Positions 34,897-42,892 of a stretch of 64,000 bases of DNA are shown here, in pieces. Each line of letters begins with the position of its first letter. The first letter of the stretch is position 1. The stretch spans positions 196,009 to 260,008 of the forward strand of contig JAAXKQ010000005.1 of assembly GCA_025612245.1 (NCBI GenBank). The letters run 5' to 3'. This stretch comes from Ignavibacteria bacterium. GTDB taxonomy: Bacteria > Bacteroidota > Ignavibacteria > Ignavibacteriales > SURF-24. Both the position numbers and the translations under genes were made by a program. Under the pieces are notes generated by a model that saw only the letters and a list, made by a program, of their open reading frames with translations, was not told the origin of the DNA and did no database searches.

Positions 34897-35532
34897 TTAT
34901 TTATCAACCTGGGGCCTTTCGGCGATATATTGCAGTATCGGAGCTGCACTCATCTTCCAATTGCGAAATAAGAGACGGTACATTCGAACGAATAAGGCAA
35001 AAATCATGTAGCCGATTGCAGCGCCGAGCGTGTTAAATATAACGTCGTTGATGTCGGCGACACGGAATGTAATATCTGCCATGAACCCCGATATCAACTG
35101 CAGTAACTCGATAGCGATGCTAAAGAGCGCGCCGGCAAGGGCTACTCTTTTCATGCGGAAATTGGTAATGAACGGCAGTCCGAAGCCGAACGGCACCATA
35201 AGAAGAACGTTAAGAAGCGAGGTCTTTACGTCCCCTGGTGTGAGCGTGGCAAGCGGAATAAGATTAAGGCTTTTTTCTGCTCTAAGGCCATTGAGCATCA
35301 GGTTTGGCACAAAGTGCTTTAGAAGAAGCAGGGATTGAAACTGGAACAGTGTGTAATCGAAAACCTTATACAGGTATACGTAGAATATGGTGAAGTACAA
35401 CACATACACTTTACACTTTTTTTTCTTCAGCAGAAAAAAGGCCGAGATGCCGAGCCAAATGGAGCCAAAAAAAAGAAAGGTTGCTAGGTTAATTGCCATG
35501 CTTACACTCTTATAATCCATGATGTCCCTCAA
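34897..35532 (-). CDS. VanZ-family membrane protein
   Basis: A 211-residue membrane protein with about five spans. The VanZ signature is clear: LLNVLLMVPFGFGLPFI near 105 and SIAIELLQLISGFMADITF with ADINDVIFNTLGAAIGY near 150-180. VanZ-like proteins give low-level glycopeptide tolerance in some Gram-positives, but the family is broad and the role in a Gram-negative envelope is unknown. Confidence 0.85.
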   Translation of the reverse strand: MRDIMDYKSVSMAINLATFLFFGSIWLGISAFFLLKKKKCKVYVLYFTIFYVYLYKVFDYTLFQFQSLLLLKHFVPNLMLNGLRAEKSLNLIPLATLTPGDVKTSLLNVLLMVPFGFGLPFITNFRMKRVALAGALFSIAIELLQLISGFMADITFRVADINDVIFNTLGAAIGYMIFALFVRMYRLLFRNWKMSAAPILQYIAERPQVDK

Positions 35533-35956
35533 GGTATAATACCAGTTAAGATAAAGTTTTAAATACGGGCGCCAAAAAAGTTAAATAATAATGAAAAAAG
35601 TACTTCAAATCAACAACAATTTATCATATTAAAATTATCGCAAAATCATAATAAAATAATTATATTTCTCTGTCTTTTTTATTGAAACTTTATGTATCTC
35701 CAATTTGAATTTTGGATCATAAAAAGAATTGATGATAAAGCATCTGCCATACCTTTGATAACCTCTACTTTGTAGTTATGTATATAACTGTTCGAATTAT
35801 ATAAATCTGGAGTCCCTTGCCAGGTAGTATCGTTTTTAAGCAGTGTTAAGGATAATTACTTCTTCTTTATTATAAATGCCTTACTCAGAGAACAAGTTCT
35901 CTGAATTAGTTCGTGTTTTTTGCAGTAATTATTAATTGTTTAATTCGATTAAAATA
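35533..35956. other. Control region upstream of the peptide-export cluster
   Basis: A 424-bp AT-rich gap between the divergent VanZ and exporter genes, without a coding frame. It holds the palindrome at 35885-35904. A weak promoter match follows (TTTG at 35919-35922, then TAATTCGA 18 bases on), too poor to call. Confidence 0.4.
35885..35904. promoter_or_regulatory. Perfect inverted repeat, candidate operator
   Basis: TCAGAGAAC (35885-35893), AA, GTTCTCTGA (35896-35904): nine-base perfect arms with a two-base centre. It is too tight for a terminator and has no T tract, so a dimeric-regulator binding site is more likely. It lies 53 bp before the exporter start codon. No regulator gene sits next to it. 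Confidence 0.5.
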
Positions 35957-38128
35957 ATGTCTCTGATTCCATCACTTATGTTGAAAATATTACGTAAAAG
36001 GTTCCCATTAGTCCGGCAATATGATCAAATTGACTGCGGTCCTGCTTGTTTGCTAAGCATTTTGAAATATTACTCCGGTAATACATCCCTCGTGCATATG
36101 AGGGAATTGTGCAATACAGGCACGAATGGCAGCACAATGTTCGATGTTATTAATGCTGCAAAAGAGATCGGTTTCGATGCTTTCGGTGCTGAAGGAGAAT
36201 ATGAAGATTTGGAGAAAGAGGCAATGCCATGCATTGCTCATCTTGTTATTGAGGAAAAGCTAAACCACTTTGTAGTTATTTATAAAATCGACAAAAACAG
36301 AGTCTTTATTGCTGATCCCGGTAAGGGCCGATATTACCTTGCTAAAGAAGAGTTCTTAAGAATATGGAAAAGCAGGTCTGTGGTTTTGTTAAAACCGGAC
36401 AGGGATCTAATGAATCTTGAAGCACCCGTATGGTATAAATGGATTATGTCATATATTCATAAAGAAGATACCTGGGTGTATCAGTCTTTATTTTTAGGAA
36501 TAATATATACTATAATCTCACTTCTGACTTCTGTGTTTGTTCAGATGATTATCGATAAATATATACCGGAACAAAAAACCTGGAAAGTGCTTTACACCGG
36601 ATTGTTATTGCTGATATTACTTGGAATAAAGGTTTTAGCGGGTTTCTTCAGACAGCGCTTTTTAGTAGAACTTAATAACCGCATAAGCCTCAATATTAAC
36701 GCCGACTTTATTTCTCACATTTTTAAGCTGCCTAAGAAGTTTTTTGATACTCGAAAAGCCGGAGACATTACCTCCAGAATTAACGATGCAATAAAAATTC
36801 AGCAATCTGTCCTTCAGATTACCGGTACTACAGCCATTGATATACTGATAATAACAGCTTCGTTTATTCTCATATTTCAGTTTTCCAGTGTACTGGCAGG
36901 CATCACACTTTGTATGGTTCCCATTTATCTGGGGACAATGATCTATGGTGCCCTGAAGCTAAAAAAGCATCAACGGGAAGTGATGAAAAATTATTCCCTT
37001 GTTGAAGCTTCATATATAGATACGTTAAATGGTATTGATGAAATTATTAGCTACAGTTCATCTGATTATTTCTCAGATATAAACAGGAAATACTTCAGAA
37101 ATTTCCAGGAAAAGATAAAAGCCCTGGGATTGACCCAATCGAATCTGGCTTTTGTTTCGGATGGCTTGGGTGTCCTTGGTTCCATTCTATTACTGACACT
37201 CGGTTCTGTGATGGTAATTAATAAAGAATTAATGCTCGGTCAAATGATGGGCTCATTTACTCTTTATGGCGCAATTATGCCTTCTATTAATAGAATGGTT
37301 GATTCAATTGTAGGGTTGCAGGGTGCGTCAATTGCTTCGCAGAGACTAATGGACCTTTTCCTGGTAAAAACTGAAAATGCATCTGGCACGGGGGTAGAAC
37401 CCGATTGGAAAGGAATTGAGCTGAAAAATGCCGGATTTGGCTGGAATAACAGAAATCCGCTATTTAAAGATGTTAATATGCAGATCCCAAAGGGACTGAT
37501 AACCGCTCTTTATGGCAAAAGCGGAAGTGGTAAAAGCACAATTGTCCAGATCCTTCAGAGAAAATATGAGCTTACAGAAGGCTGCATGTTCTATAATAAT
37601 ATTGATGCAGGTTCAATTAGTCTGGATGTTTATAGAAAAAAAATTGCGGTTGTTCCTCAGAATATAAAAATATTTAACGGCACGTTGCTTGAAAATATAC
37701 TAATGGGAAGAAATCTTCCTTCAGTAGATGAGCTCAATGATAGAATTAAGCTTCTGGGGTTTGATGATTTTTTTAAAAGATTTGAATGGGGCTACTTTAC
37801 AATTCTTGGAGAAGATGGTCGCCATCTTTCAGGCGGGGAAAAGCAGGTAATAGCTCTTGTCAGGGCACTGTTCGACAAACCCGATCTCCTTATAATTGAT
37901 GAAGGACTAAGCGGATTGGATCACGACCTTGAAGCGATGATATTTGCTAGGTTGAAAGATTATTCCAAAGACCACGGGGTTTTTATAATAACTCATAATA
38001 CTCAAATACTTGGAAGATGTGAGCATATATACAGGCTCGGGGACGGAAAGATTAGAATTGAAGGTAATCCACTCATTAATAATGATAAACAAAAAGCTTA
38101 TGAAACAAAAAATATTGGACTTAATTAA
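35957..38128 (+). CDS. C39-peptidase ABC exporter for double-glycine peptides
   Basis: A 723-residue inner-membrane exporter that cuts the leader of a peptide after GG and pumps the core across the membrane. An N-terminal C39 peptidase domain (about 15-140) has the nucleophile C27 in QYDQIDCGPACL, a His in NHFVVIYK and an Asp in IADPGKG. Six membrane spans follow (about 160-430), then the ATPase with Walker A GKSGSGKST, signature LSGGEKQ and Walker B LLIIDEGLS. All catalytic elements are present. I use ATG 35957; TTG 35936 would add seven residues. The next gene overlaps its end by 29 nt. The probable substrate is the peptide encoded at 39744. Confidence 0.93.
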   Translation: MSLIPSLMLKILRKRFPLVRQYDQIDCGPACLLSILKYYSGNTSLVHMRELCNTGTNGSTMFDVINAAKEIGFDAFGAEGEYEDLEKEAMPCIAHLVIEEKLNHFVVIYKIDKNRVFIADPGKGRYYLAKEEFLRIWKSRSVVLLKPDRDLMNLEAPVWYKWIMSYIHKEDTWVYQSLFLGIIYTIISLLTSVFVQMIIDKYIPEQKTWKVLYTGLLLLILLGIKVLAGFFRQRFLVELNNRISLNINADFISHIFKLPKKFFDTRKAGDITSRINDAIKIQQSVLQITGTTAIDILIITASFILIFQFSSVLAGITLCMVPIYLGTMIYGALKLKKHQREVMKNYSLVEASYIDTLNGIDEIISYSSSDYFSDINRKYFRNFQEKIKALGLTQSNLAFVSDGLGVLGSILLLTLGSVMVINKELMLGQMMGSFTLYGAIMPSINRMVDSIVGLQGASIASQRLMDLFLVKTENASGTGVEPDWKGIELKNAGFGWNNRNPLFKDVNMQIPKGLITALYGKSGSGKSTIVQILQRKYELTEGCMFYNNIDAGSISLDVYRKKIAVVPQNIKIFNGTLLENILMGRNLPSVDELNDRIKLLGFDDFFKRFEWGYFTILGEDGRHLSGGEKQVIALVRALFDKPDLLIIDEGLSGLDHDLEAMIFARLKDYSKDHGVFIITHNTQILGRCEHIYRLGDGKIRIEGNPLINNDKQKAYETKNIGLN

Positions 38129-38768
38129 AAATAACAACATTAAAAACTGGCAAATATTCATATTGCTTGTTACACTTGACTTCCTGCAGGAAGCTATTAC
38201 GAATAATTTTGTTTTTACAAAAGAAACATATCACATTCTATTAGCCCCGAAAATGGAAAGTTATCAGATTGATAACATATTTATTATAATGAAACGAAAT
38301 TCAACGTATAGTTACTTATTCATTCCCGTTATTCTCCTTATTCGCATACTCACTGTTACAATGCTAATTCAGCTTTTCTTTTTATTTGGCCGTATGGAAC
38401 TGAAACTAAAAGAGGTTTTCAGAATTGCTTCTTATGGGGTGATTATCTTACTTATAGGATCTCTTGTAAAATCGATTTGGCTGATGTCAATTCCGCGCGA
38501 GCAGCTTACAATAAAGATGTTTAGCCATATGCCTCTTTCACTTACAAATCTGGTTAACCCATATAAGATGGATCATATAATGGTTGGGTTGTTTAACTCA
38601 ATCAATATCTTTGAAATATTGTGGATACTGACGATAGGATTTTTAATTAAGCTTCTTTATAACATTAAATTTACCAAGTCCGTAATTTACTCCCTCGGCG
38701 TCTGGGTATTAGTTCTCATTTTTCAAACAGGATTGAATCTTTATGTGGCAAGAGTTTTTCATGGATAG
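38100..38768 (+). CDS. Membrane protein of the peptide-export cluster
   Basis: A 222-residue protein, not recognised, with about five hydrophobic spans (near 15-35, 72-100, 115-135, 163-185 and 195-215). The chosen start, ATG 38100 (MKQKILDL), overlaps the exporter gene by 29 nt; ATG 38082 is an alternative. Its 3' end overlaps the MauE-like gene by eight bases, so it is translated as part of this operon. By position it may be an accessory or immunity-type protein, but no motif supports either. Confidence 0.7.
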   Translation: MKQKILDLIKNNNIKNWQIFILLVTLDFLQEAITNNFVFTKETYHILLAPKMESYQIDNIFIIMKRNSTYSYLFIPVILLIRILTVTMLIQLFFLFGRMELKLKEVFRIASYGVIILLIGSLVKSIWLMSIPREQLTIKMFSHMPLSLTNLVNPYKMDHIMVGLFNSINIFEILWILTIGFLIKLLYNIKFTKSVIYSLGVWVLVLIFQTGLNLYVARVFHG

Positions 38769-39156
38769 GGTGAACAAAAATACATTAGCCAAGATATTTA
38801 GATATATTCTGGCACTTATCTATCTTGTTTCAGCAGTACTGAAACTAATTGATTTTGAGGCTACTGCAGTAATGATCAAAGAGATTGTTCAACTTGACCT
38901 TTTATATGTCAGGACTGCTCTTCTAATATTGATATTACTGGAGGCTTCTGTTGCCACTGCATTGGTATTAGACCTTATGAAAAGATTTACAAGGGCGCTT
39001 CTATTTGCCTTATCTGGATTTTTCATCATTTTCAATATAGCGCTGATTCTGAATGGATTTGACAATTGCGGATGTTATGGTGCCTCAATTAAACAATCTC
39101 CAAATCTAAGCCTGATAAAGAACATTTTAATAGTTTTAATGACTTTTATGATATAA
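38761..39156 (+). CDS. MauE/DoxX-like membrane protein
   Basis: A 131-residue protein with four spans. It matches the MauE family by IFRYILALIYLVSAVLKLIDF at the start and by the conserved pair C103-G-C105 in GFDNCGCYGAS. MauE, with MauD, is needed for correct disulfide formation in methylamine dehydrogenase; relatives feed electrons to or from periplasmic thioredoxins. The ATG overlaps the previous stop codon (ATGGATAG), a clear translational-coupling start, and a TlpA-like gene follows 13 bases later. Inferred role: redox partner of that thioredoxin during peptide maturation. Confidence 0.85.
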   Translation: MDRVNKNTLAKIFRYILALIYLVSAVLKLIDFEATAVMIKEIVQLDLLYVRTALLILILLEASVATALVLDLMKRFTRALLFALSGFFIIFNIALILNGFDNCGCYGASIKQSPNLSLIKNILIVLMTFMI

Positions 39157-39169
39157 TGGAATATTGGAT

Positions 39170-39667
39170 ATGTACAAAAAAGTTTCGGTGATATGCTTTC
39201 TAATTATATTTTCCGGGATTACCGTATGGCTTTATTTGAATAGTTCCTCAAAAGACAGGTTCCCGCTAGGCAGCAATATGCCTTCTTTTACCTTTCGGAG
39301 CATATCAGGTGTAAAATCGATTGCTAAGGATCCAAATAAAAAAATTATGATTGTCCTTTTCTCATTAAACTGTGCTCATTGTAAAGCATTTTTAGCTGAT
39401 CTGGATAAGAATATATCGAAGTTTAAGGATACAGGGATTTATCTTTTTGCCCAGGAAGAGAGGATATTTGACATAATGAAAAGCCATACTAACAAAACTT
39501 ATTTAAGCCTTGGAAGCTCGGGAAATGTACAGTTCGGCTTTTTCAGTTTAGATGGCTCAAGGGATAAGTTCAAAACTTCTGCTGTACCGTCGATTTTTGT
39601 GTTTGAAAACAATAAACTGATTAAAAAATTCAACGGATCACCAAGTATAAACAGGGTTCTGAATTGA
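39170..39667 (+). CDS. Membrane-anchored TlpA-like thioredoxin
   Basis: A 165-residue thioredoxin-fold protein held by an N-terminal span (MYKKVSVICFLIIFSGITVW) and facing the periplasm. The active site is C68-A-H-C71 (LNCAHCKAFL) with a cis-proline loop SAVPSIFVF. A TTG two codons upstream (39164) could also start translation. Pairing with MauE resembles the MauE-MauD arrangement. With a four-cysteine peptide gene directly downstream, disulfide formation or proof-reading in that peptide is the simplest inferred job. Confidence 0.87.
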   Translation: MYKKVSVICFLIIFSGITVWLYLNSSSKDRFPLGSNMPSFTFRSISGVKSIAKDPNKKIMIVLFSLNCAHCKAFLADLDKNISKFKDTGIYLFAQEERIFDIMKSHTNKTYLSLGSSGNVQFGFFSLDGSRDKFKTSAVPSIFVFENNKLIKKFNGSPSINRVLN

Positions 39668-39670
39668 AAT

Positions 39671-39708
39671 TAGCTCAGCTATGAGGTCCGGAAAGATTAT
39701 CTGAGCTA
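39671..39708. repeat. Hairpin repeat copy 1, upstream of the peptide gene
   Basis: Eight-base perfect arms TAGCTCAG (39671-39678) and CTGAGCTA (39701-39708) around a 22-base loop containing TATGAGGTCCGGAAAGATTA. It starts four bases after the thioredoxin stop codon. The second copy at 39930-39965 differs by only two bases across the shared core, so the pair flanks the peptide gene. There is no T tract, so it is not an ordinary terminator. Confidence 0.75.
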
Positions 39709-39743
39709 AATAACACAACAAACAAAATAAACATGAGGTAAAA

Positions 39744-39911
39744 ATGAAAAAGTTAAATGAGAACCAAACTATAGCTATCATTGGTGGAGAGGTATGTCCA
39801 GATAATTGCGTTCGCTTAAGCTTTTTAGAGCAGGCATACGGGTACCAGTTTATTATGGATCACGGATGGTGGGAAGAGTTCGTTTATTGTGCTGATGTTT
39901 TAGATTGCTAG
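39744..39911 (+). CDS. Double-glycine-leader peptide precursor with four cysteines
   Basis: A 55-codon gene. The first 15 residues (MKKLNENQTIAIIGG) are a classic leader ending in GG, the cut site of C39 exporters. The predicted 40-residue core starts EVCPDNCVRL and has Cys at 18, 22, 49 and the C-terminus (55), a WW pair at 42-43 and several other aromatic residues. It is strongly acidic (eight Asp/Glu against one Arg), unlike most cationic bacteriocins. GAGGT lies five bases before the ATG. The C39 exporter and a MauE/TlpA redox pair lie just upstream. A disulfide-linked secreted peptide, bacteriocin or signal, is inferred; its activity is unknown. Confidence 0.8.
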   Translation: MKKLNENQTIAIIGGEVCPDNCVRLSFLEQAYGYQFIMDHGWWEEFVYCADVLDC

Positions 39912-39929
39912 TATTTTCTTAGGTGAGTC

Positions 39930-39965
39930 AGCTCAGATATGAGGTCCGGAATGATTATCTGAGCT
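39930..39965. repeat. Hairpin repeat copy 2, downstream of the peptide gene
   Basis: Arms AGCTCAG (39930-39936) and CTGAGCT (39959-39965) around a loop containing TATGAGGTCCGGAATGATTA. It is a near-exact direct repeat of 39671-39708, 259 bp away, placed 18 bases after the peptide stop codon. Confidence 0.75.
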
Positions 39966-40014
39966 ACTTTATAGCTAAATGGTAACAATTATTTAATTAT
40001 AAAGGATAAAGTTT

Positions 40015-40596
40015 TTGAAGAAACTAATAATTTCTGTGGCTGTTACATTTATTCTACTTGTGGCCGTAATTCTGGTGAAAAATGAGAAGAGCGCAGGACT
40101 TGAGACAAAAGGATTCTGTATTGAAAACAGATATAATATATTAAATAATGAAATGGACTTGCGTTTACAGCTGGTAGGGCAGAAAATTCCGATAGAGGAT
40201 AATTCACACTGCAGCAAAATAATCCTTGCCAACATGGAAAGGGATAATAAGACCTATGATTTCAGGAGAGATCTGGAATCTGCAATGGAATATTATTCTG
40301 ATAAAAAGGATTCTTTACAAGATTTGAAAGATACTAAGCTTATATATTTAACAAGGGATGAGGCCTCCCCGGTACTGGGTACAATACGGAAAAAATATAA
40401 AGATAAGGTCAAAATATCAAAAGAATCATCCGATGTTTTGGCGGAGAAATTCTCGATACCGCCGAAGGGAGTTATAGTTCTTTATCTTAATAAAGATAAT
40501 ATTTGTCTCTATGCTTATTATCTTGAACAGAACAATGCGCGTAAAGTAATGGAGAATTCACCAGTAATATTTCAACTAATTAAAAATGTTAAATGA
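40015..40596 (+). CDS. Membrane-anchored protein of unknown function in the cluster
   Basis: A 193-residue protein starting at TTG 40015 behind AAAGGA. Residues 4-22 are a single N-terminal span, so the rest should be periplasmic. The body has a mixed alpha/beta rhythm (KLIYLTRDEASPVLGTIRKK, PPKGVIVLYLNKDNICLYAY) faintly like a thioredoxin fold, but there is no CxxC. Three scattered cysteines are present. Its end overlaps the next gene (ATGA). I do not recognise the family; a binding or chaperone role for the peptide is possible. Confidence 0.65.
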   Translation: MKKLIISVAVTFILLVAVILVKNEKSAGLETKGFCIENRYNILNNEMDLRLQLVGQKIPIEDNSHCSKIILANMERDNKTYDFRRDLESAMEYYSDKKDSLQDLKDTKLIYLTRDEASPVLGTIRKKYKDKVKISKESSDVLAEKFSIPPKGVIVLYLNKDNICLYAYYLEQNNARKVMENSPVIFQLIKNVK

Positions 40597-41207
40597 AAAA
40601 GAGCAATCTGATAATCGGCGCCAGTATTTTACTCACAGCAATCATGGCACTGGGTTCGTATCTGATATACGATAATTGTTCCACTGAAAGCAGGATATTA
40701 TCTATGATCAGAAAAAACCTGGGGGTTGTAAATTATTATTGTAAAGCTAATAACATAAATCCTCGCATTTACATAAGCATAATCTATGGTGAATTGCACA
40801 GTAATTATAACTTTTTTGATGATTTTGACAATTTACGCGCAGAGTATGGTTTTGATCCTTCGGCGGGTTTCGGACAAATGAAAGTTTCTACTTTAATGTG
40901 GCTAGAAGAGAATTATTCAGACGGCAAAATAATATCAAAAAGCCGGAACAGAAAAGAGGCTGTTAGCAAATTATTAAATGATACTACAAATATTGCATAT
41001 AGCGTTTTTTATATAAAACTGATAAGCCAAAAGCTCAGGAGCATTACTGCAAAAGAACCTACGGTTAAACAGCTGGGATCTTTTTACAGCCTGGGAATAG
41101 ACCATGGAAAAAGAGAAATTAACTCTGACTTTACTAGTCCTGTCGGACTGGCGGCCGAAAAATTCTATTATTCAGATGATCTGATTGAGATTTACCCGCG
41201 GCAATGA
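40593..41207 (+). CDS. Membrane-anchored SLT-like lytic transglycosylase
   Basis: A 204-residue protein with an N-terminal span (about 6-26) and a lysozyme-like domain. The catalytic Glu is E67 (SIIYGELHSNY) and the family's glycine-glutamine motif follows as GFGQMKVST near 92, then NIAYSVFYIKLISQKL. These are hallmarks of Slt-type enzymes that cleave the glycan strand of peptidoglycan. It is translationally coupled to the gene before it. In this cluster it may open the wall for export or belong to a killing or self-remodelling function. Confidence 0.72.
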   Translation: MKKSNLIIGASILLTAIMALGSYLIYDNCSTESRILSMIRKNLGVVNYYCKANNINPRIYISIIYGELHSNYNFFDDFDNLRAEYGFDPSAGFGQMKVSTLMWLEENYSDGKIISKSRNRKEAVSKLLNDTTNIAYSVFYIKLISQKLRSITAKEPTVKQLGSFYSLGIDHGKREINSDFTSPVGLAAEKFYYSDDLIEIYPRQ

Positions 41208-41259
41208 TTCATTCAGGAGGGATGTGTCTATAGGAACCTTATTCTAAATTACAAATAGG

Positions 41260-42156
41260 ATGGCAATTATTAAGATGAGACAAACCATAAATCCTTTCCT
41301 TATTATGATGGGATTTTTAGTATTATTGATAGTGCTTGTATTTCTCAGAAATAACTATTACCACAAAGGCTCTTCTTCTCCGGTTGTATTATTAAGATGT
41401 GATGATTTTGGAATTAGCAGGTCTGTAAACCTGGCAATTGAAAAGCTTGCAGAGCGGAAAATACCCTTTTCTGCTTCATTAATTGTAAATGCCAGGTTCT
41501 ACAATGAAGCTGTTGAGATACTAAAAAAAAACAGGACGATATCGGTCGGTGTTCACCTGACGTTTACCTCTGAATGGGAAAATGACAGGTGGAAACCATT
41601 GTTGCCAATTGAAAAGGTAAGATCATTAGTCGACAGTAATGGATGCTTTTATCCCTCGAGGTCTTCCCTGTGGAAGCAAAGACCGGACACTTTAGAAATT
41701 GAGGAGGAGGCGGAAGCTCAAATTAAAAAAGTATTAAAGTCAGGCATTAAAATCAGTTACATCGACGCACACATGTTTTCTCTCTATTCAAAAGAATACC
41801 ACAACATATTGAAAAGACTCGGCGCAAAATATAATCTGCTGGTCTCTGGAATGAATAATGAACTGCTCTTAAATGATATGTTCAAAACAGACGCAGGAAA
41901 CAAATTGAATAAATATCTTGAAATACTTTCAAATGTTGATTCCGGCGACACGTGTCTTATAGTTTTGCATTTGGCAGCATATCCCGACGAACTAAATTCA
42001 ATGAAAGATCTGAACAACCCCTATTTTACTCAAAACGGCAGTTATCGTTATAGTGAATACTGTGCCGTTATTTCCGATAAAGCCATGCAGTTTATCGATA
42101 AGAAGAAGATTAAGCTCATTAATTATTCAAATTATTCTATTAAAATGCCAAAATGA
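41260..42156 (+). CDS. Membrane-anchored YdjC/ChbG-like deacetylase
   Basis: A 298-residue protein with an N-terminal span (about 12-30) followed by a YdjC-family carbohydrate deacetylase domain. The metal and catalytic residues are visible: D48-D49 in LLRCDDFGIS, H99 in SVGVHLTF and H171 in SYIDAHMF. ChbG removes acetyl groups from chitooligosaccharides; family members also act on other amino sugars. Most homologues are cytoplasmic, so the anchor that would place this one in the periplasm is unusual and fits action on peptidoglycan or its fragments. Confidence 0.82.
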   Translation: MAIIKMRQTINPFLIMMGFLVLLIVLVFLRNNYYHKGSSSPVVLLRCDDFGISRSVNLAIEKLAERKIPFSASLIVNARFYNEAVEILKKNRTISVGVHLTFTSEWENDRWKPLLPIEKVRSLVDSNGCFYPSRSSLWKQRPDTLEIEEEAEAQIKKVLKSGIKISYIDAHMFSLYSKEYHNILKRLGAKYNLLVSGMNNELLLNDMFKTDAGNKLNKYLEILSNVDSGDTCLIVLHLAAYPDELNSMKDLNNPYFTQNGSYRYSEYCAVISDKAMQFIDKKKIKLINYSNYSIKMPK

Positions 42157-42163
42157 AAAGCAT

Positions 42164-42892
42164 ATGATAAAAAAATCCAATTTGCTCTTCATTGTTATTC
42201 CTGCATTGATATTTTCATATATTCTGTATATGATAATTGTTGATAGTTTACCCCTGGCTTGTACGAATGGATTCAGAATAATCTCCCGAAAAGAATGGAA
42301 TGCAAACAACCCGCTTGACACATCCGGCGTTTATTATTATAAAGATGATTTAAAAGTAGTTCTGAAATATATTGTAATACATCATTCCGGCTTTCGCGAA
42401 AATATAGGTGTAAAGAATATTCAGAGCTACCAGCAGTCGTGTGGATATAACGATATTGCCTATCATTTTATCATTGATAGGTATGGAAAAATATATGAGG
42501 GAAGAAAGATAAATACGCTTGGTGCGCATGCAGGAGAAACAGCAGAGGCCAATAATATGGCCCAAAGGTTTAGCAAACATATAGATAAACATTTAACTGC
42601 TACTAGCCTGCCGGAGCCATATAAACTTGATCCTGACTATGGAGCAATAGGCATATGCCTGGAGGGGAATTTTGAAATAGAAAGGCCGACCAGATGTCAG
42701 CTCTCAAACCTGAAACAACTGGTATTATACCTAATGCAGAAATACAACATAGAAAAAGATAACATAATGTTGCATAAGGAGGTGCGGAAACGGCTTATTC
42801 TTAAGAGAAACCTGCATCCAATTAAAGAAGAAACACATTGCCCCGGTAAATATGGAGCGGCAGAAATTAAACATCTAATTAATACAATCTAA
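42164..42892 (+). CDS. Membrane-anchored N-acetylmuramoyl-L-alanine amidase (PGRP type)
   Basis: A 242-residue protein with an N-terminal span (about 5-25) and an amidase_2/PGRP domain. Zinc ligands are H73 or H74 (YIVIHHSGF), H218 (NLHPIKEE) and C226 (THCPGKYG); the eight-residue spacing of the last two is the family norm. The block SYQQSCGYNDIAYHFIIDRY carries the catalytic-site Tyr region. The enzyme cleaves the bond between muramic acid and the stem peptide. The start, ATG 42164, lies seven bases after the deacetylase stop codon. It closes the cluster. Confidence 0.88.
   Translation: MIKKSNLLFIVIPALIFSYILYMIIVDSLPLACTNGFRIISRKEWNANNPLDTSGVYYYKDDLKVVLKYIVIHHSGFRENIGVKNIQSYQQSCGYNDIAYHFIIDRYGKIYEGRKINTLGAHAGETAEANNMAQRFSKHIDKHLTATSLPEPYKLDPDYGAIGICLEGNFEIERPTRCQLSNLKQLVLYLMQKYNIEKDNIMLHKEVRKRLILKRNLHPIKEETHCPGKYGAAEIKHLINTI

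What the first reader, a model, noticed from the sequence alone, without database searches (positions are those of the whole stretch)
35957..42892. Putative undescribed peptide-export system with redox pair and three cell-wall enzymes
Nine consecutive plus-strand genes, many overlapping or separated by a few bases, combine a complete C39 exporter, a MauE-like protein, a TlpA-like thioredoxin, a four-cysteine GG-leader peptide, an unknown anchored protein and SLT, YdjC-type and amidase_2 enzymes that all carry N-terminal membrane anchors. Each family is established; the combination is not one I know. I infer export and disulfide folding of a peptide, with the wall enzymes either clearing a path, giving self-protection or forming part of an attack. 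No HlyD-type adaptor or TolC gene is present, so how the peptide crosses the outer membrane is open.
Basis: partly seen in the sequence, partly recalled or inferred. Interest (0 to 1): 0.85.

Follow-up and report, generated by a model that had tools for sequence, protein, structure and literature searches.

The report
Peptide export operon with wall enzymes
A nine-gene bacterial operon joins a known kind of small-peptide exporter to four membrane-anchored envelope proteins, three of them cell-wall-cutting or wall-sugar-modifying enzymes; the whole set is conserved in three distant relatives and may show how such peptides get out of a two-membrane cell.

Summary
The nine genes are real, intact and in the order described. 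The full order exporter (A), membrane protein (B), MauE (C), TlpA (D), peptide (E), anchored protein (F), muramidase (G), YdjC (H), Amidase_2 (I) recurs in two other metagenome-assembled genomes of the same order but other families, although four-fold synonymous sites between them are saturated. It is therefore a maintained unit. Four genes (C39 exporter, multi-TM protein, thiol oxidoreductase, GG peptide with a 15-residue leader) match the published bacteroidetocin-type core, which also lacks HlyD and TolC, so that part is not undescribed. New are: a MauE partner; four anchored proteins (F, a Tse3-like muramidase rather than a plain SLT, YdjC deacetylase, amidase); strongly acidic, aromatic 40-54-residue peptides unlike known bacteriocins; and an operon-specific hairpin with a nearly invariant loop on both sides of every peptide gene. 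The closest core-only relatives carry class-II-bacteriocin-like peptides and lack F-I and the hairpin. Most likely the peptide is exported, oxidised in the periplasm, and helped out of (or built into) the producer's envelope by local wall remodelling. That last step, and antibacterial activity, are inferred, not shown.

The parts
35957..38128 (+). Gene A: C39-peptidase ABC exporter (723 aa from ATG 35957; TTG start at 35936 possible); cuts GG leader and exports
   Evidence: Pfam Peptidase_C39 3e-34, ABC_membrane, ABC_tran; groups with B-linked exporters, apart from HlyD-linked ones
38082..38768 (+). Gene B: 4-6 TM inner-membrane protein, unnamed family linked to C39 exporters across the phylum (ATG 38082 or 38100)
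   Evidence: homologues beside C39 exporters in most loci; no Pfam family, best Yip1 0.015 in one member; hydropathy
38743..39156 (+). Gene C: MauE-like membrane protein with invariant NCGC motif; probable redox partner of D
   Evidence: Pfam MauE 5.7e-14; alignment
39164..39667 (+). Gene D: anchored TlpA/thioredoxin-like protein with CXXC and cis-Pro (ATG at 39170)
   Evidence: Thioredoxin 3.4e-4; invariant C68, C71, P140
39672..39707 (+). Hairpin 1, upstream of the peptide gene; loop TATGAGGTCCGGAAAGATTA with centred palindrome TCCGGA
   Evidence: only two copies in genome; homologues only in the two sister operons
39744..39911 (+). Gene E: peptide precursor; 15-aa GG leader, 40-aa acidic core with 4 Cys (2 conserved)
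39930..39965 (+). Hairpin 2, downstream of the peptide gene; loop TATGAGGTCCGGAATGATTA
40015..40596 (+). Gene F: membrane-anchored 193-aa protein specific to this operon; weakly thioredoxin-fold-like, no CXXC
40593..41207 (+). Gene G: membrane-anchored Tse3-like muramidase (goose-lysozyme / lytic-transglycosylase fold), putative catalytic Glu conserved
41260..42156 (+). Gene H: membrane-anchored YdjC-type carbohydrate deacetylase
   Evidence: Pfam YdjC 4e-39; DD and His motifs invariant
42164..42892 (+). Gene I: membrane-anchored Amidase_2 (N-acetylmuramoyl-L-alanine amidase); His and Cys Zn-ligand motifs conserved
   Evidence: Pfam Amidase_2 1.4e-18; alignment

Best explanation
It is a bacteroidetocin-type peptide maturation and export operon extended by an envelope-remodelling module. 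The C39 exporter (A), helped by membrane protein B, cleaves the 15-residue GG leader and moves the peptide into the periplasm. MauE (C) recharges the TlpA-like oxidoreductase (D), which closes the conserved disulfide. F, perhaps a redox-dead thioredoxin-like chaperone, and the anchored muramidase (G), amidase (I) and deacetylase (H) then locally open and modify the producer's own peptidoglycan, so that the peptide is released through, or assembled across, wall and outer membrane without HlyD/TolC. Two hairpins isolate the peptide cistron on the mRNA, probably raising its expression over the flanking genes. Shown by sequence: the parts, their intact motifs, conserved order, co-inheritance and selective constraint. 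Inferred: disulfide transfer, wall opening on the producer's own wall, release, and hairpin function.
For: Same A-I order in three genomes of three families, with proteins 39-72% identical while four-fold sites are mostly 26-47% identical, so kept by selection. Convincing F and peptide matches occur only in these operons among 164 order genomes, and F in no other genome of an 84,980-species scan. The core matches the published four-gene bacteroidetocin region; deletion of its TM protein or thiol oxidoreductase lowered activity, and it too lacks a known outer-membrane step (PMC6671954). Exporter tree: B-linked exporters separate from HlyD-linked ones. CXXC/cis-Pro in D, NCGC in C, Glu in G, DD/His in H, His/Cys in I all conserved. 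Single N-terminal anchors put the enzymes in the periplasm of the producer. Core-only relatives L019 and L020 have Bacteriocin_IIc-like peptides and no F-I or hairpin, so peptide type and wall module vary together.
Against: Only three genomes, two of them MAGs with some contamination; in L062 the exporter is cut by the contig end. A 40-54 residue peptide can cross peptidoglycan unaided, so a need for wall opening is not obvious. Core-only loci manage without F-I. The F-I enzymes could serve another purpose. No activity or transcript is known. Weak U tracts after some downstream hairpins leave partial termination between E and F possible. F's fold rests on a low-confidence model (pLDDT 53).
Confidence: 0.5

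Rival explanations
1. Lysis-release system: the muramidase, amidase and deacetylase kill a fraction of producer cells, freeing periplasmic peptide, as lysis proteins release colicins.
For: No outer-membrane exporter in the operon; the bacteroidetocin authors themselves suggest possible release by lysis (PMC6671954). G and I together could dismantle the wall.
Against: Enzymes are predicted to be tethered to the inner membrane and there is no holin-like gene; a deacetylase and F are not needed for lysis; no obvious stress regulator is tied to the operon in the window.
Confidence: 0.2
2. The peptide is not an exported weapon but a periplasmic partner of the enzymes: an inhibitor, activator or structural piece that controls or anchors a local wall-remodelling complex.
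For: Core peptides are strongly acidic (net -6 to -8) and aromatic, unlike basic bacteroidetocins, and match no bacteriocin family. The peptide family was never found without F-I. G and I relatives sit beside MauE-thioredoxin and small Cys-containing secreted peptides with no C39 exporter (L064-L066).
Against: C39/GG export usually serves secreted toxins or signals; two divergent peptide copies in L061 look like diversifying secreted products.
Confidence: 0.22
3. Two functionally separate operons (export core and wall enzymes) that happen to be neighbours in one inherited stretch.
For: A hairpin and 103 nt separate E from F; core-only loci exist.
Against: Order kept in three families despite saturated synonymous sites and different flanks; F-I presence tracks the peptide type and the hairpin.
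Confidence: 0.06

Closest known systems
Bacteroidetocin biosynthesis region (proposed class IIf bacteriocins; Coyne et al. 2019, PMC6671954)
   Same: C39 ABC exporter, multi-TM protein, thiol oxidoreductase, GG peptide with a 15-aa leader, about 40-aa core with 4 Cys; no HlyD, TolC or immunity gene
   Different: MauE added; F-I envelope module and hairpins added; peptides acidic, not basic; sequence similarity to bacteroidetocins A/B not tested
Core-only loci of the same order, L019 and L020 (found here)
   Same: Same A-B-C-D-peptide order; exporters form one group with window + L061 with 100/100 support
   Different: No F-I, no hairpin; peptides are Bacteriocin_IIc-like and Gly-rich
HlyD/TolC-dependent C39 exporters of Bacteroidota plasmids (for example Phocaeicola salanitronis pBACSA02)
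   Same: C39 ABC exporter
   Different: Linked to HlyD and TolC genes, separate branch of the exporter tree, no B, MauE, TlpA or wall enzymes
MauE/MauD pair of methylamine dehydrogenase maturation (own knowledge)
   Same: MauE membrane protein next to a thioredoxin-like protein, thought to form disulfides in a periplasmic substrate
   Different: Substrate here is a C39-exported peptide
Tse3 type VI muramidase
   Same: Profile match over residues 47-154 with the Glu of IILAEQ (catalytic, own knowledge) aligned; similar predicted fold
   Different: Here membrane-anchored in the producer, no T6SS link; no Tsi3-like gene was looked for

Membership tests
Bacteroidetocin (class IIf) region | GG precursor with 15-16 aa leader, about 42-aa core, at least 2 Cys | tested here: met
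   15-aa leader, 40-aa core, 4 Cys (2 conserved in relatives)
Bacteroidetocin (class IIf) region | C39 ABC transporter/peptidase and thiol oxidoreductase | tested here: met
   Pfam and conserved CXXC
Bacteroidetocin (class IIf) region | Orthologue of the five-TM protein | tested here: inconclusive
   B is a 4-6 TM family found beside C39 exporters, including a locus (L030) with the published order TM-peptide-oxidoreductase-ABC; the published protein itself is not held
Bacteroidetocin (class IIf) region | Core peptide somewhat basic | tested here: not met
   net charge -7
Bacteroidetocin (class IIf) region | Sequence similarity of peptide to bacteroidetocins A/B | not testable with these tools
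   published peptide sequences are only in figures and supplements
Bacteroidetocin (class IIf) region | Kills Bacteroidales, via BamA (PMC8546649) | not testable with these tools
   needs peptide synthesis and assay
Class II microcin type I export | HlyD adaptor and TolC in or near operon | tested here: not met
   none among operon genes or 20 neighbours
Class IIb/IIc bacteriocin (Bacteriocin_IIc) | Profile match of the precursor | tested here: not met
   no hit for window, L061 or L062 peptides, while core-only L019 and L020 peptides hit at 8e-5 and 4e-4, below the curated cut-off
Lytic transglycosylase SLT (PF01464) | Pfam SLT profile match | tested here: not met
   no hit for G; one distant relative at E 0.03
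Tse3-type muramidase fold | Profile and fold match with catalytic Glu | tested here: inconclusive
   profile vs Tse3 E 0.02, one relative vs PF22115 2e-5 (just under its cut-off), Z 8.2 over 154 residues but tied with MltC and MltF, Glu aligned: favourable, not decisive

The most novel reading that the evidence does not exclude
Some bacteroidetocin-type peptide systems carry a dedicated, co-inherited wall-remodelling apparatus (Tse3-like muramidase, amidase, deacetylase and a thioredoxin-like partner) that takes a disulfide-closed acidic peptide out of a Gram-negative cell without HlyD/TolC, with the peptide cistron set apart by paired self-complementary (kissing-type) hairpins of a new kind.
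Probability: 0.25. Interest if true: 0.85.

Novelty: new variant of a known kind. Interest (0 to 1): 0.62.

Why it matters
How bacteroidetocin-type peptides cross the outer membrane is an open question that their discoverers raised. A naturally occurring operon that adds membrane-anchored wall-cutting enzymes to that export core gives a concrete, testable candidate for the missing step. The peptide family (acidic, Tyr/Trp-rich, one conserved Cys pair) is unlike known bacteriocins, and the operon-specific hairpin is an undescribed, strongly constrained cis element.

Tried and rejected
Viral-contig scans with C and B found no relatives. Rfam gave no family for the hairpin. A loop-pattern search with 2 mismatches gave about 100 scattered matches such as TATGAAATCCGGAAAGATTA; the covariance model scores only the nine operon copies strongly, so the rest were treated as chance. 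F against D by profile comparison: no homology beyond the N-terminal anchor; F's thioredoxin-like fold rests on a weak model. B has no Pfam family. Plasmid search for L030 B: none. The closest C39 exporters on Bacteroidota plasmids that were annotated are of the HlyD/TolC kind. Insertion into an empty site could not be tested: the downstream flanking gene lacks a true orthologue in G001/G002. A cassette-recombination reading of the hairpins (attC-like) was considered: L061 and L062 show hairpin-gene-hairpin arrays, but L062 repeats carry copies of the end of D, which plain duplication explains. Literature searches found no prior report of this combination in the held library.
Full report
WHAT IS THERE. 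Nine plus-strand genes run from 35957 to 42892. In order: A, a C39-peptidase ABC exporter; B, a protein with 4-6 predicted membrane segments; C, MauE; D, an anchored TlpA-like protein; E, a 55-residue peptide precursor MKKLNENQTIAIIGG/EVCPDNCVRLSFLEQAYGYQFIMDHGWWEEFVYCADVLDC; F, an anchored 193-residue protein; G, an anchored muramidase-like protein; H, an anchored YdjC protein; I, an anchored Amidase_2 protein. F's best structural matches are nearly all thioredoxin-like, at low model confidence and low Z, and it has no conserved CXXC.

IT IS A CONSERVED UNIT. Searching 164 genomes of the order with F and G showed two more genomes, G499 and G428, from two other families, with the full order A-B-C-D-peptide-F-G-H-I. 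They are a Melioribacteraceae MAG and a 'Bacteroidetes bacterium' sediment MAG; a scan of 84,980 species genomes with F found only these two besides the window's own genome. Proteins are 39-72% identical between genomes while four-fold degenerate sites are mostly 26-47% identical (C between L061 and L062 is 67%, from 15 sites), so the set has been held together by selection for a long time. Flanking genes differ, and the same-genus relative G001 lacks B. The peptide profile finds four strong matches (E 3e-26 or better) in the order, all in these three operons; L061 has two peptide genes. The muramidase's close subfamily also occurs elsewhere: in L064, L065 and L066 it lies near MauE or MauE-thioredoxin fusions and 6-bladed propellers, in L064 and L065 also small secreted Cys peptides, and in L066 directly before an Amidase_2 45% identical to I, with no C39 exporter. 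The link 'MauE/thioredoxin, small Cys peptide, wall enzyme' is thus wider than this operon and points to a periplasmic role after export.

THE EXPORT CORE IS KNOWN. Two nearer relatives, L019 and L020, have A-B-C-D followed by GG peptides but no F-I; L019's contig ends about 0.4 kb past its peptide gene, so F-I cannot be fully excluded there, while L020 has 8 kb beyond. Across the phylum, B relatives lie beside C39 exporters, often with TlpA-like proteins, in most of the loci read. In L030 the order is TM protein, four-Cys GG peptide, thioredoxin-like protein, C39 exporter, the order published for bacteroidetocins A and B, where the four genes suffice for toxin production in E. [quoted passage not shown]). 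A tree of 18 exporters separates B-linked ones from HlyD/TolC-linked ones and joins window + L061 to L019 + L020 with full support (some branches are long, so the deeper order is unsure).

WHAT IS NEW. (1) MauE sits between B and D in the five loci of this order. (2) F-I. (3) The peptides: cores of 40-54 residues, net charge -6 to -8, a fifth aromatic, two conserved Cys; no match to bacteriocin models, whereas L019 and L020 peptides are Gly-rich, near-neutral and match Bacteriocin_IIc weakly. Peptide type, F-I and hairpin vary together. (4) A hairpin GCTCAGN-TATGARGTCCGGAATGATTA-NCTGAGC lies on both sides of every peptide gene in all three operons (nine copies), with the loop nearly invariant and a stem that is 94% paired with two pairs changed on both sides. 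It occurs exactly twice in the window's genome, not in L019/L020, and nowhere else in about 290 genomes of the class; Rfam has no such family. The invariant TCCGGA at the loop centre is self-complementary, so the two hairpins could pair loop to loop; that, a processing or stability role, weak attenuation after E, or a duplication site are all open.

MECHANISM. Steps supported by homology: GG cleavage and export by A; help by B; oxidation by C and D; G, H and I acting on peptidoglycan or its sugars. Step inferred: because G, H and I are predicted to be tethered to the producer's inner membrane, their first target is the producer's own wall. Muramidase, amidase and deacetylase can act on successive groups of the same polymer, which suits local opening or trimming coupled to release or assembly of the peptide. 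Lysis-based release and a purely periplasmic partnership (peptide as inhibitor or structural piece) remain real alternatives; the acidic character of the peptide argues against a classic membrane-active bacteriocin.

VERDICT. I file it as a new variant of the bacteroidetocin-type export system, not as a bacteroidetocin, since the basic-core feature was not met and peptide similarity could not be tested.

Noticed in passing
window 39672-39707 and 39930-39965; L061 (-) 4764, 4471, 4199; L062 2721, 4939, 5218, 7467: Operon-specific hairpin with nearly invariant 20-nt loop containing centred palindrome TCCGGA; flanks each peptide gene; copies downstream of peptide genes tend to be followed by short U tracts.
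   Followed up: partly
L062 2650-7520: Between D and F of the sediment MAG operon, four related lipoprotein genes (MKNLK..SCQEDFNPKTDF) lie in two pairs, and copies of the 3' end of D plus the hairpin recur after each pair: array growth by duplication.
   Followed up: partly
L064 2884-4542, L065 5746-9684, L066 250-4930: Relatives of muramidase G (and of amidase I in L066) lie near MauE or MauE-thioredoxin fusions and DUF5128-type propellers, with small Cys-containing secreted peptides in L064 and L065, without a C39 exporter.
   Followed up: partly
L020 2597-8410: Core-only locus G023 encodes at least four GG peptides plus a further ABC ATPase and small proteins: a multi-peptide class II bacteriocin-like locus.
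   Followed up: no
G000:C43:79891-80280 (locus L001): A second C39-peptidase exporter (open frame of 1013 codons) on the same contig, outside the window.
   Followed up: no
window 34897-35532 (-): VanZ-family gene divergent from the operon, about 0.4 kb upstream.
   Followed up: no
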